From: an uncultured Desulfosoma sp. | GTDB lineage: Bacteria; Desulfobacterota; Syntrophobacteria; Syntrophobacterales; DSM-9756 | Direction of reading: 5' to 3' | NCBI GenBank assembly: GCA_937960435.1 | Contig: CALGPN010000013.1 | Span: 1 to 41,262 of the forward strand | Length of the DNA: 41,262 bases | Shown: piece after piece, positions 37,347-40,765 of the stretch | Numbering within the stretch: the stretch's first letter is position 1 | Layout of the letters: the number at the start of each line of letters is the position of its first letter | Notes under the pieces: model-generated | What the model was told of the DNA's origin: nothing | The model's input: only the letters and a program-made list of their open reading frames with translations | The model's database searches: none | Program-made: the position numbers and the translations under genes

Positions 37347-37442
37347 ATACTGAGCCCGGAAAGTGCCCGCGATTCGGGCATGGTTCTTTATTCGTCGCCT
37401 TCGTGCGACGCTGTGTCCTAAGCCCTCATGAAGAGAGGCACT

Positions 37443-38279
37443 ATGAAAAGAAAGCTGGTTGCCCTGGCGTGGGTTTTATGGATGGTGTGGGACGGCTCTG
37501 TGGCCTTCGCGGCTCGGCAGGATGCGCAGGCACAGGACTGTGCTCTTGTGTCCCATGTGATTCGAGTGATGGCGCAGGGAGATCGGGTTGAAGGCGCTCT
37601 TTATGTGCCCCAAGGTTTCCAAGGGGAGGAAAGGTCCTCGCATCCCATGTTGATTCTTTCCCACGGCTTTTCCAGGGACTACGGGCGCCACGTGGCCAAC
37701 GCCATCGCTTATGCCTGCGCCGGCATCGTCACCTACACCCCCAATCTTGTCCCCATTGATGCGTGGGCATTGGATGACGAGCGACAAGTGGCGAACGTCG
37801 TCGATCATGTCAAATGGTTGCGCCAGAAGGCATCAGATCCGACGGATGCCTTGTACGGTGTGGGGGATCCATGGCGAATCGCACTGGGGGGCCATAGCGC
37901 GGGAGGCGCGGTCAGCGTTGAGGCCGCAGAAAAATTGCAAAAAGAGGGCATTCCCATATCGGCTCTCGTTCTCTTGGATGCCGTTCCGGGGCAAGGGACT
38001 CTGGAGGCAGCGGCGCGGGTTGAGCCTCTTCCTGTGATCAGTCTGCGTTCGCGTCCCGGACCGTGCAACGCCTTTGGCTCTGCCCGAGATTTGGAGGAAG
38101 CTTTCCCCTTCCCTGTGCAGTCCGACTTCTTTTCATCGGCGACGCATTGCGATCCCGAATCCCCGACGGATGTCCTCTGTCGTCTGCTTTGTGGGGGCAG
38201 TTCGGAAGAGGCGCGGCTGACATATCGTGAGAAGGTATTGGAATTTCTCAAAGGCACTCTCTTTCTTGCGGATCGTTGA
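37443..38279 (+). CDS. Secreted alpha/beta hydrolase
   Basis: A 278-residue exported hydrolase. A signal peptide (MKRKLVALAWVLWMVWDGSV, then AFAA) is followed by a serine-hydrolase fold: LILSHGFSRDYGRHVANAIA (oxyanion region) and the nucleophile elbow GGHSAGG, plus VLLDAVPGQG and SATHCDPESP, which could supply Asp and His. Several cysteines in the mature part suggest disulfides. It resembles the chlorophyllase/dienelactone-hydrolase-like group, but the substrate cannot be told. The ATG at 37443 follows GAGAGG; an ATG at 37428 is possible. It is alone, between a terminator and the riboswitch region. Confidence 0.82.
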   Translation: MKRKLVALAWVLWMVWDGSVAFAARQDAQAQDCALVSHVIRVMAQGDRVEGALYVPQGFQGEERSSHPMLILSHGFSRDYGRHVANAIAYACAGIVTYTPNLVPIDAWALDDERQVANVVDHVKWLRQKASDPTDALYGVGDPWRIALGGHSAGGAVSVEAAEKLQKEGIPISALVLLDAVPGQGTLEAAARVEPLPVISLRSRPGPCNAFGSARDLEEAFPFPVQSDFFSSATHCDPESPTDVLCRLLCGGSSEEARLTYREKVLEFLKGTLFLADR

Positions 38280-38379
38280 CTCATGCTTCTCATCAGCCAT
38301 TTAGGAGAGGTTGGCCGGCTGCGACTTAGGCTTGACATTCTGGGATCTTCATGGCAATGACCGGATACGGTTGGGATAA

Positions 38380-38553
38380 GGTTTTCCAGCATCCCGGAAC
38401 ACGGTGCAAATCCGTGGCGGTCCCGCCGCTGTGATCGGGGATGAGAGAGCGCAGAGGTCCGAAATGGCGGACCGGTCACTTTCGGGGTCCACCTCGAGGG
38501 GAAGGCCGCGCTACCTCAGAGGATCCGAGAGCCAGAAGACCTGCTGGAAAACC
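38380..38553 (+). promoter_or_regulatory. Cobalamin (B12) riboswitch aptamer
   Basis: The closing helix GGTTTTCCAGC (38380-38390) with GCTGGAAAACC (38543-38553) is a perfect 11-bp match. Within it are the core GGAACACGGTGCAAATCCGT followed by GGCGGTCCCGCCGCTGTGAT, and the B12 box AGCCAGAAGACCTGC (38530-38544), all hallmarks of adenosylcobalamin/cobalamin aptamers. A TTGACA (38332-38337) upstream may be the -35 box, but I see no good -10. A terminator hairpin follows at 38581. It should lower expression of the peptide and radical SAM genes when B12 is plentiful. Confidence 0.93.
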
Positions 38554-38580
38554 CAATGCCGGGTAACCGATGGCAAAGGA

Positions 38581-38628
38581 AGCCCGGGGCGAATCGGCGT
38601 GATGCGGATTGGCTCCGGGCTTTTTCTT
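38581..38628 (+). terminator. Riboswitch-controlled terminator
   Basis: AGCCCGGGGC-G-AATC (38581-38595) pairs with GATT-G-GCTCCGGGCT (38607-38621) across one mismatch, followed by TTTTTCTTT. It lies between the cobalamin aptamer and the peptide gene, so it is the expression platform of the riboswitch. Confidence 0.88.
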
Positions 38629-38680
38629 TGGCGGCCCGCGGTCCTTGAATGAATGCGAACAACGAGAAGGAGGAAGCACA

Positions 38681-38800
38681 ATGAAGAAAGAGGCTCGCAT
38701 CATTTCTTATCGGCGACGTTGTCGGAAACTTGGCGACTCGACGGGGCTTTCCCATTACATCCTGCTCACCCCCACTAAGAAAGACAAACAGGACAAATAG
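38681..38800 (+). CDS. cbpA: RiPP-type precursor peptide (CbpA-like)
   Basis: A 39-residue peptide with an excellent ribosome binding site (AGAAGGAGGAAGCACA). The N-terminal part MKKEARIISYRRRCRKLGDS is basic; the C-terminal part TGLSHYILLTPTKKDKQDK ends in a Lys/Asp-rich tail. Its stop codon directly abuts the ATG of a radical SAM/SPASM enzyme. A short, basic peptide before such an enzyme is the standard layout of a ribosomally made, post-translationally modified peptide. The cobalamin riboswitch upstream fits, as I recall it, the family called CbpA. The modified residue is unknown; Cys14, Tyr26 and the Thr/Ser residues are candidates. Confidence 0.8.
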   Translation: MKKEARIISYRRRCRKLGDSTGLSHYILLTPTKKDKQDK

Positions 38801-40192
38801 ATGAACGATGCGGTAGTCAAAACGGGCCCTCCCCGCTATGCCAATAGCGGATGGGGGCCTTCGTTTTCCGTTCTGGACATTGGGTTAGCCGATCGTGTGG
38901 CGGTGCTGGAACCGGAAAGCGCCTTCTGGGCCATCGTCGATGGGAGCGCTCTGCCGGAGGCTCTGTCCGGGCGCGTGCTTGAAGCGTTCGTGGATCGTCA
39001 GGAAAGCTTTCGCCAAGAAATGGACCGCCTGCGCTTCGGTTTGAAGCCTTCGGCCGTCTATTTCAACCCCACGGAGCGGTGCAACTTCAACTGCACGTAC
39101 TGCTATTTGCCCGAAGAGATGCGCCGCAGCGGCAAGACCATGAGTGCCCAAGAAGTCGCTGCGGCCTTGGAACGGCTCGCGGCCTATTTCGACAGGACGC
39201 TGGAGCCGGGGGTCAAACCCCAACTCATCTTCCACGGCTCAGAACCCATGCTGGCCCGAGAGGCTGTTTTCGCCGCCATCGATCGCTTCCGCGACCGGTT
39301 TCTTTTCGGGATTCAGACCAACGCCACTCTTTTGGACGAAGAGGCCGTCGATTTTCTCACCTCGCACGGGGTGGGTATCGGCATTTCGCTGGACGCTCAT
39401 GAGGCGCCCGTGGCCGATGCCGTCCGGAAGAACTGGCAAGGACATGGGGCCTTTACCCAGGTGGTCCGGGTCATGGAGCGTCTTGCCTCCTATCCGGCCT
39501 TCAATGTCATTACGACGGTGACTCGGGAAAATGTGCCGTTGCTTCCCGAACTCGTGGATTTTTATCACGATGCCGGTGTTCGCGTCGTGATGTTCAATCC
39601 GGTGCGGTGCACTCGAAGCGGCGGCATGGCCCTCAAACCTGAGGACAGTGTCTTGGCGGAGGCTTTTTGTGCGGCATTGGATCGAACGTACGCCCTTTTT
39701 GAAGCGACGGGGCGCCCGCTCGTGGTAGCCAACTTCGCCAACGTCTTGGCGGGAATCCTCGGACCGACGGGTCGCCGGCTCATGTGCGACATTTCCCCGT
39801 GCGGCGGCGGAAGATGTTTCATGGCCGTCTCCGCCCAAGGGGATCTTTTCCCCTGCAGTGAGTTTATCGGCTTTCCGGAGTATCGCGGTGGGAATCTTTT
39901 TCGGGACGATTTGGACGGAGTCTTGAAAAGCGCCCCGTTCCGGGCGGTGACGACTCGGGTGGTGGAAAACATCGACCCGTGTCGGCGATGTGCCGTTCGG
40001 CATTTTTGCGGGGCGCCCTGTCCTGCGGAAGTCCAAGCAGTGAATGGCGGACTGGAGTCCCCTAGTCCTTACTGCCGCTTTTATGAGGAGCAGATCCGAT
40101 ACGCCTTTCGTGTGATCGCCCAGGGCCGGGAGATGGCGTATCTTTGGGACGGCTGGGACGAAGAGACGGAAGAAACCTATCGGTGTGCATGA
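38801..40192 (+). CDS. cbpB: Peptide-modifying radical SAM/SPASM enzyme (CbpB-like)
   Basis: A 463-residue radical SAM maturase that should modify the peptide encoded just before it. The radical SAM cluster motif C94-X3-C98-X2-C101 lies in NPTERCNFNCTYCYLP. The SAM-binding region includes LIFHGSEPML, FGIQTNATLLDEEAVDFL and GISLDAH. The C-terminal SPASM domain has C329, C334, C339, C352, C394, C397, C403, C407 and C425, matching the CX2CX5CX3CXnC hallmark for two auxiliary 4Fe-4S clusters. The N-terminal 80 residues are probably a peptide-binding domain. It is translated right after the precursor (zero-base spacing). Control by the cobalamin riboswitch links it to B12 status. Confidence 0.88.
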   Translation: MNDAVVKTGPPRYANSGWGPSFSVLDIGLADRVAVLEPESAFWAIVDGSALPEALSGRVLEAFVDRQESFRQEMDRLRFGLKPSAVYFNPTERCNFNCTYCYLPEEMRRSGKTMSAQEVAAALERLAAYFDRTLEPGVKPQLIFHGSEPMLAREAVFAAIDRFRDRFLFGIQTNATLLDEEAVDFLTSHGVGIGISLDAHEAPVADAVRKNWQGHGAFTQVVRVMERLASYPAFNVITTVTRENVPLLPELVDFYHDAGVRVVMFNPVRCTRSGGMALKPEDSVLAEAFCAALDRTYALFEATGRPLVVANFANVLAGILGPTGRRLMCDISPCGGGRCFMAVSAQGDLFPCSEFIGFPEYRGGNLFRDDLDGVLKSAPFRAVTTRVVENIDPCRRCAVRHFCGAPCPAEVQAVNGGLESPSPYCRFYEEQIRYAFRVIAQGREMAYLWDGWDEETEETYRCA

Positions 40193-40288: not shown

Positions 40289-40765
40289 TTATTGCCAACT
40301 GGTGATATCCGCGTTTTCGCCCTCTCCGCCTTCGTGACCGTCGGCACCTAGAGAATACAAATCATAATCCCCATGCTGCCCCGGAGAGCGGTAAATGTAG
40401 TCCCGACCCCACGGGTCTTTGGGAACGTCTTTGGGGAGATAGGGCCCATCCCATGTGTCGTATCCCGGATTGACCCGAAGGGCCGACAGACCCTGTTCCG
40501 TGGTGGGGTAACGACCAACGTCCAAACGGTAGGCATCCAAGGCCGTTCCCAGCAAGGCGATCTGCGCCTTCGCGGCCTTGATCTTCGAGGTTCCGACCTT
40601 TTGAAACATCTTGGGAGCCACCAAAGCCGCCAATAAACCTAAGATCACCATGACGATCAAAAGTTCGATCAAGGTGAATCCTCGACCGACTCGCGCGGGG
40701 TGATTCTTCCTGAGTGGCCGGAAGGCTTCTTGAGTTGAATGGATCACGTCCGCTTCACCTTTCAT
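40289..40765 (-). CDS. gspG: Type II secretion major pseudopilin GspG
   Basis: Major pseudopilin that forms the pseudopilus of the type II secretion system. The 158-residue product has the prepilin peptidase site GRGFTLIELLIVMVILGLLA (cleavage between G29 and F30, Glu at +5), then the globular domain with GRYPTTEQGLSALRV, WDGPYLPKDVPKDPWGRDYIY and the calcium-binding DLYSLGADGHEGGEGENADI at the C-terminus. The 29-residue leader is long. No other gsp gene is next to it in the window. AGGATCTCAGC precedes the ATG on the minus strand. Confidence 0.94.
   Translation of the reverse strand: MKGEADVIHSTQEAFRPLRKNHPARVGRGFTLIELLIVMVILGLLAALVAPKMFQKVGTSKIKAAKAQIALLGTALDAYRLDVGRYPTTEQGLSALRVNPGYDTWDGPYLPKDVPKDPWGRDYIYRSPGQHGDYDLYSLGADGHEGGEGENADITSWQ

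What the first reader, a model, noticed from the sequence alone, without database searches (positions are those of the whole stretch)
38380..40192. Cobalamin riboswitch controlling a 39-residue peptide and its radical SAM maturase
Aptamer, terminator, short peptide and SPASM radical SAM enzyme follow one another with no gap between the last two. A RiPP made when B12 is low suggests a cobalamin-related role, for example metal or cobalamin scavenging, or signalling. The maturase family has been named (CbpA/CbpB as I recall), but to my knowledge the product and its function are not established.
Basis: partly seen in the sequence, partly recalled or inferred. Interest (0 to 1): 0.8.

Follow-up and report, generated by a model that had tools for sequence, protein, structure and literature searches.

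The report
B12-riboswitch peptide and its radical-SAM maturase
When vitamin B12 is scarce this bacterium is predicted to switch on a tiny peptide and the enzyme that chemically modifies it; relatives in many phyla keep the same pair inside their B12-making, cobalt-import or B12-import operons, so the unknown product most likely helps the cell obtain or handle cobalt or B12.

Summary
A cobalamin riboswitch (RF00174, 67 bits) at 38351-38562 is followed by an intrinsic terminator (38581-38629), a 39-codon gene (38681-38800) and, with no gap, a 463-aa radical SAM/SPASM enzyme (38801-40192; NCBIfam CbpB, 684 bits against a cut-off of 375). The pair belongs to a family NCBI has named (CbpA/CbpB); no paper on it was found in the held library. 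The peptide is conserved: C-x(n)-G-L-[ST]-H-[YF] lies upstream of cbpB in 102 of 104 loci from more than ten phyla, against 1 match elsewhere in 1.56 Mb. In 395 genomes of the phylum all 35 with CbpB have CbpA. New here is the context. Of 104 loci, 74 have their own cobalamin riboswitch. Of the 30 without, 23 lie among at least 3 corrinoid genes (cbi/cob, CbiMNQO cobalt importer, BtuFC), an arrangement that arose at least three times. Some such genomes lack the corrin-ring genes tested and look like salvagers. Best reading: CbpB makes a Cys/His-containing RiPP serving cobalt/corrinoid supply, probably as a metal or corrinoid ligand. Modification, product and function are untested.

The parts
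38351..38562 (+). cobalamin riboswitch aptamer
   Evidence: RF00174, 67.0 bits vs gathering 31.5, model 1-189 complete
38581..38629 (+). intrinsic transcription terminator (expression platform)
   Evidence: G+C hairpin followed by TTTTTCTTT; in MFE fold; similar hairpin between aptamer and cbpA in 60 of 72 riboswitch-led loci vs 2.4% of shuffles
38668..38673 (+). Shine-Dalgarno AGGAGG of cbpA
   Evidence: sequence read directly
38681..38800 (+). cbpA: 39-aa precursor peptide, core C14...G22-L-S-H25-Y26
   Evidence: conserved core in 102/104 loci; leave-own-phylum-out HMM E 3.4e-11; TIGR04164 19.6 bits, below its curated cut-off of 35
38801..40192 (+). cbpB: 463-aa radical SAM/SPASM peptide maturase
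   Evidence: TIGR04163 683.6 bits vs cut-off 375; Pfam Radical_SAM and SPASM; AF2 model pLDDT 85, best PDB matches are RiPP maturase CteB (Z 34.4) and anSME (Z 32.6)
38864..39037 (+). CbpB residues ~22-79: N-terminal beta-beta-beta-alpha-alpha domain, RRE-like (leader-peptide binding)
   Evidence: AF2 secondary structure; alignment to CteB starts at residue 20
39080..39103 (+). CbpB radical SAM motif C94-x3-C98-x2-C101
   Evidence: invariant in 30 aligned homologues

Best explanation
This is a B12-repressed two-gene RiPP unit. With enough corrinoid the riboswitch folds so that the terminator ends transcription; when corrinoid is low the polymerase reads through into cbpA-cbpB (aptamer and terminator shown; direction inferred from riboswitches of this class). 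CbpB probably holds the N-terminal part of CbpA with its RRE-like domain and uses its [4Fe-4S]/SAM and SPASM clusters to modify the invariant Cys...Gly-Leu-Ser-His-Tyr segment (inferred). The product serves cobalt/corrinoid supply and is probably kept inside the cell. The likeliest molecular role is a small Cys/His ligand that carries or presents cobalt or a corrinoid between uptake and use (inference, the weakest step).
For: Riboswitch 250-700 nt upstream of cbpB, plus terminator, in most loci. 23 of the 30 loci without their own riboswitch have at least 3 corrinoid genes within 8 kb, all or nearly all on the same strand; gene orders, family names; at least 3-4 independent origins on the CbpB tree. 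Importers share the gene run: CbiMNQO or NicO, BtuFC/TonB receptor, BtuF-BtuC-ABC directly before cbpA in G004. CbpA is in 35/35 CbpB genomes, one copy each, and kept even where unlinked (G431). In the phylum 34/35 CbpB genomes have CbiD vs 162/360 without CbpB (Fisher p 2e-10, not corrected for kinship). Own genome's other cobalamin riboswitches precede CbiK, a TonB receptor + BtuF-like protein, and CobT. Core Cys and His are invariant (both letters were part of the search pattern, so for pattern-free support).
Against: No modification, product or metal binding has been measured. About half of the corrin-making genomes of the phylum or more lack the pair, so it is accessory. No fixed neighbour gene points to one step. 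The Methylovirgula plasmid copy has neither riboswitch nor B12 genes nearby. L050 and the Archaeoglobaceae loci show neither context. Conserved Cys and His may be cross-link sites rather than metal ligands.
Confidence: 0.55

Rival explanations
1. CbpA matures into a peptide-derived redox or radical cofactor (as PqqA and mycofactocin precursors do) used by an enzyme of corrinoid metabolism, for example to reduce cob(II)- to cob(I)alamin for adenosylation or to reduce a corrin intermediate.
For: Strongly conserved, non-diversifying core and single copy per genome resemble cofactor precursors; corrinoid reductases are unidentified in many organisms (established knowledge); cobA adenosyltransferase shares some operons.
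Against: PQQ and mycofactocin systems carry proteases and further tailoring enzymes next to the maturase; none recurs here. No reductase recurs beside cbpAB.
Confidence: 0.2
2. The product is a secreted metallophore or corrinoid-binding peptide taken back up through the TonB receptor and BtuFCD.
For: TonB receptor and BtuFC/ABC genes share the operon in L039, L040, L046, L080, L099; B12-repressed expression fits a scavenger.
Against: No signal peptide, exporter or protease gene recurs; most loci are just riboswitch-cbpA-cbpB; it also occurs in archaea.
Confidence: 0.12
3. A B12-sparing device: the pair replaces or supports a B12-independent enzyme when corrinoid is low, as metE does.
For: A stand-alone gene pair behind a cobalamin riboswitch fits an alternative isozyme.
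Against: It sits inside cbi/cob and btu operons in several independent lineages, and in its phylum it is concentrated in genomes with CbiD.
Confidence: 0.08
4. CbpA is only a regulatory leader ORF for cbpB, not a substrate.
For: Short, directly upstream, overlapping or touching cbpB in many loci.
Against: The core is conserved while the gap to cbpB varies from -4 to over 400 nt; substitutions in the core are mostly synonymous; in G431 cbpA is kept on a different contig from cbpB.
Confidence: 0.03

Closest known systems
NCBIfam TIGR04163/TIGR04164 (rSAM_cobopep CbpB / cobo_pep CbpA)
   Same: Enzyme well above the curated cut-off; adjacent short peptide matching the CbpA model; cobalamin riboswitch upstream. 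NCBI annotates the same pair elsewhere (Methylovirgula plasmid).
   Different: This peptide scores 19.6 bits, under the peptide model's cut-off of 35; its Cys-to-Tyr spacing is 12, whereas 10 is commonest. No experimental member was found in the held library.
SCIFF maturase CteB / PapB ranthipeptide maturases
   Same: Same architecture (RRE-like domain, radical SAM, SPASM); best structural match CteB 5WGG, Z 34.4, 389 residues aligned; PapB family is the next sequence family (138 bits).
   Different: Far below PapB's cut-off (340). SCIFF has six Cys (established knowledge); CbpA has one conserved Cys, so a single thioether at most.
Anaerobic sulfatase maturases (anSME)
   Same: SPASM fold, Z 32.6, 120.6 bits in sequence; act on a Cys or Ser of a peptide stretch.
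   Different: anSME lacks the RRE-like domain and acts on sulfatases; CbpA has no (C/S)-x-(P/A)-x-R sulfatase motif.
PqqA/PqqE and mycofactocin
   Same: Conserved, non-diversifying precursor next to a radical SAM/SPASM enzyme.
   Different: No protease or further tailoring genes; linked to corrinoid genes instead.
DUF71-B12 (PMC3541065)
   Same: Another uncharacterised gene tied to B12 salvage by BtuCDF and cbiB neighbourhood; neighbours cbpB in L040, L055, L080, L099.
   Different: An ATP-pyrophosphatase-type protein; that paper does not mention a radical SAM enzyme.

Membership tests
RF00174 cobalamin riboswitch | covariance-model score above gathering cut-off, full length | tested here: met
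   67.0 vs 31.5 bits, positions 1-189
RF00174 cobalamin riboswitch | binds a corrinoid and represses expression | not testable with these tools
   terminator present; no binding or expression data
TIGR04163 CbpB | score above curated cut-off | tested here: met
   683.6 vs 375 bits over 428 positions
TIGR04163 CbpB | radical SAM CX3CX2C motif and SPASM domain | tested here: met
   C94/C98/C101 and C329, C334, C352, C394, C397, C403, C407, C425 invariant in 30 homologues; PF04055, PF13186
TIGR04163 CbpB | N-terminal RRE (leader recognition) domain | tested here: inconclusive
   AF2 bbb-aa domain at residues 22-79; alignment to CteB starts at residue 20; not folded or searched on its own
TIGR04164 CbpA | score above curated cut-off of the peptide model | tested here: not met
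   19.6 vs 35 bits, E 4.5e-4, so it is not filed under this model by score; homology rests on the row below
TIGR04164 CbpA | homologous core, encoded with a CbpB | tested here: met
   leave-own-phylum-out HMM 38.6 bits, E 3.4e-11, only significant hit in window; directly upstream of CbpB
PapB-type ranthipeptide maturase | NF047865 curated cut-off | tested here: not met
   138 vs 340 bits
Anaerobic sulfatase maturase | TIGR03942 curated cut-off | tested here: not met
   120.6 vs 349 bits
RiPP system | precursor is post-translationally modified by the enzyme | not testable with these tools
   needs co-expression and mass spectrometry

The most novel reading that the evidence does not exclude
Mature CbpA is a dedicated intracellular cobalt or corrinoid ligand (carrier or chaperone) made by radical SAM chemistry: a RiPP built into vitamin B12 supply in many bacteria and some archaea, in both corrin makers and apparent salvagers.
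Probability: 0.33. Interest if true: 0.88.

Novelty: new member of a known kind. Interest (0 to 1): 0.6.

Why it matters
B12 metabolism is well mapped, yet this conserved peptide-enzyme pair sits in its regulons and operons across more than ten phyla without an assigned function. The gene-context evidence turns a named but uncharacterised family into a testable proposal (cobalt/corrinoid supply) and supplies the conserved core, the range of contexts and candidate cultivated hosts (Dechloromonas hortensis, D. hankyongensis, Rhodoblastus acidophilus, Desulfoferrobacter suflitae). If right, it adds a RiPP to cofactor acquisition.

Tried and rejected
Literature: five searches found no paper in the held open-access library on CbpA/CbpB; subscription papers are not held, so absence is not proof. 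A cobaltochelatase-chaperone-only role was set aside: CbpAB genomes G404, G406, G420, G421, G422 and G430 lack hits for both CbiD and CbiC, and 8 of the 58 CbpAB genomes tested lack CbiM; several are MAGs of unstated completeness. G406 also lacks CobS but has B12-binding-domain proteins. A cbpA core fused to a larger protein was sought in 395 genomes; each match is a single short stretch and I saw no fusion, though a few lie in long open frames that I did not examine one by one. Viral relatives: only generic radical SAM matches, at most 35% identity. Plasmids: one record. The promoter/terminator scanner found nothing because of its loop limit. A fixed neighbour revealing one pathway step was not found: the upstream neighbour varies (CbiO, CbiX, CobQ, CobT, CobC, CobU, AsnB-like).

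Full report
CHECK OF THE OBSERVATION. The window carries a full-length cobalamin riboswitch at 38351-38562 (+), 67.0 bits against a gathering score of 31.5. A G+C-rich hairpin with a T run (38581-38629) follows; it appears in the minimum-energy fold and in my hairpin scan. Then come a Shine-Dalgarno AGGAGG (38668-38673), a 39-codon ORF (38681-38800) and, starting at the next base, a 463-codon ORF (38801-40192). The large protein hits NCBIfam TIGR04163, peptide-modifying radical SAM enzyme CbpB, at 683.6 bits (cut-off 375); the peptide hits TIGR04164, CbpA, at 19.6 bits, below its cut-off of 35.

THE PEPTIDE IS REAL AND CONSERVED. I collected CbpB loci from the window's phylum (35 of 395 genomes) and from a collection of bacterial and archaeal genomes. 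In 102 of 104 loci a short ORF upstream of cbpB carries C-x(2-8)-G-[LG]-[STA]-H-[YF]; the same pattern occurs once elsewhere in the 1.56 Mb of loci, six frames. Because C, G, H and Y/F are part of that pattern, their invariance is partly by construction. Independent support: an HMM profile search finds the peptides (its training set was itself picked by a GLSHY-type pattern in the phylum's loci), and an HMM trained on 57 peptides with the window's phylum and the deltaproteobacterial records left out finds the window peptide as its only significant hit (E 3.4e-11). Substitutions in the core are mostly synonymous. The gap between cbpA and cbpB ranges from -4 to over 400 nt, which argues against a mere leader ORF. 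In the phylum sample all 35 CbpB genomes have exactly one CbpA; the single extra CbpA genome (G004) has its peptide at a contig end. In G431 (L037) cbpA lies on another contig than cbpB, yet both are kept.

CONTEXT: TWO ARRANGEMENTS, ONE THEME. With Rfam and a riboswitch profile, 74 of 104 loci have a cobalamin riboswitch directly upstream of cbpA. Of the 30 that do not, 23 have at least three corrinoid genes within 8 kb, all or nearly all on the same strand. The families were named: CbiX/CbiC, CbiM, CbiQ, CbiO-type ATPase, CbiD, CbiG, CbiF-type methyltransferase, CobB, CobQ, CbiB, CobS, CobT, CobU, threonine-phosphate decarboxylase CobD, corrinoid adenosyltransferase, BtuF-like and BtuC proteins and a TonB receptor; CbiN is named by position and sequence only. 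Typical orders: CobB-CbiX-CbiM-CbiN-CbiQ-CbiO-cbpAB-CbiD (L082-L085, Nitrospirota), CobQ-CobA-CobB-CbiX-cbpAB-CbiM (L118, same phylum as the window), CobT-CobS-CbiB-CobD-AsnB-cbpAB-DUF71-BtuF-BtuC-ABC (L099). In L042 a NicO nickel/cobalt transporter follows cbpB. On a CbpB tree of 99 sequences the embedded state needs four changes, at least three forced by well supported branches. The seven loci with neither context are L037 (peptide unlinked), L069 and L091 (short contig ends), L050, and three Archaeoglobaceae. A plasmid copy in Methylovirgula also shows neither.

WHAT THE DISTRIBUTION SAYS. In the phylum sample 34 of 35 CbpB genomes have CbiD, against 162 of 360 without CbpB (Fisher p 2e-10, not corrected for shared ancestry). 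So the pair goes with corrin-making genomes but is not needed by all. In other phyla six CbpAB genomes lack both CbiD and CbiC; five of these six have CobS and several carry BtuFC loci, as salvagers would. Several are MAGs of unstated completeness, so single absences are weak. The common denominator is cobalt/corrinoid supply rather than one step of ring synthesis.

OWN GENOME. Four cobalamin riboswitches were found: besides cbpAB they precede CbiK cobaltochelatase, a TonB receptor with a BtuF-like protein, and CobT. cbpAB is therefore one of four units of this genome's predicted B12 regulon.

MECHANISM. The AlphaFold model (pLDDT 85) has an N-terminal bbb-aa domain and a radical SAM/SPASM body; the best PDB match is the thioether-forming SCIFF maturase CteB (Z 34.4, 389 residues), then anSME (Z 32.6), ChlB and TigE. 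Radical SAM and SPASM cysteines are invariant. Of the 72 riboswitch-led loci examined, 60 have a terminator hairpin between aptamer and cbpA, against 2.4% of shuffles, so control is mostly by transcription attenuation; repression by B12 is inferred. Shown: the RNA elements, the conserved peptide, the enzyme family, the gene context. Inferred: that CbpA is CbpB's substrate, that Cys and/or His-Tyr are modified or bind metal, that the product stays in the cell and serves cobalt/corrinoid supply. Which modification is made is not predicted with any confidence.

KNOWN VERSUS NEW. The family is named in NCBIfam; no paper on it was found in the library, and the riboswitch link may already be implied by the NCBI name (my reading, unverified). 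This locus is thus a new member of a known, uncharacterised kind. To my knowledge the operon-context evidence has not been reported.

Noticed in passing
L039, L040, L055, L099 (flanking cbpAB): An AsnB-like protein without a glutaminase domain and (in L040, L055, L099) a DUF71 ATP-pyrophosphatase recur around cbpAB in salvage-type operons; weak similarity to lasso-peptide cyclases (2.5e-12). Possibly corrinoid or peptide amidation.
   Followed up: partly
own genome G000, contigs C6, C30, C2 (L162-L164): The other three cobalamin riboswitches precede CbiK, a TonB receptor plus BtuF-like protein, and CobT.
   Followed up: yes
G000:C25:125811-127040 (L165): CbiD of the window's family and some relatives of its order matches in two pieces within one long frame (515 aa here), i.e. 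carries an insertion of about 40 residues.
   Followed up: no
own genome G000: No CbiC (PF02570) hit at E 1e-10 although CbiD is present; assembly gap or divergent/replaced enzyme.
   Followed up: no
L078-L093, L096, L104 (except L090): A sister clade (about 40% identity; Nitrospirota, Omnitrophota, archaea) has peptides such as ...KCAKTANGLTHFVMYGDVPKKKMPL, without an own riboswitch directly upstream.
   Followed up: partly
L246 (Methylovirgula plasmid pHY1, 7864-9443): cbpA-cbpB on a plasmid beside a pqqADE cluster, no riboswitch found.
   Followed up: partly
L055, L040 downstream of cbpB: Additional small radical SAM proteins (PF04055 with Fer4_12) and CbiZ (in L055) in the same salvage operons.
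   Followed up: no
window 37428-38279 and 40289-40765: Flanking genes are unrelated to B12: an alpha/beta hydrolase upstream (+) and a GspG-like pseudopilin downstream (-; read from sequence only).
   Followed up: partly
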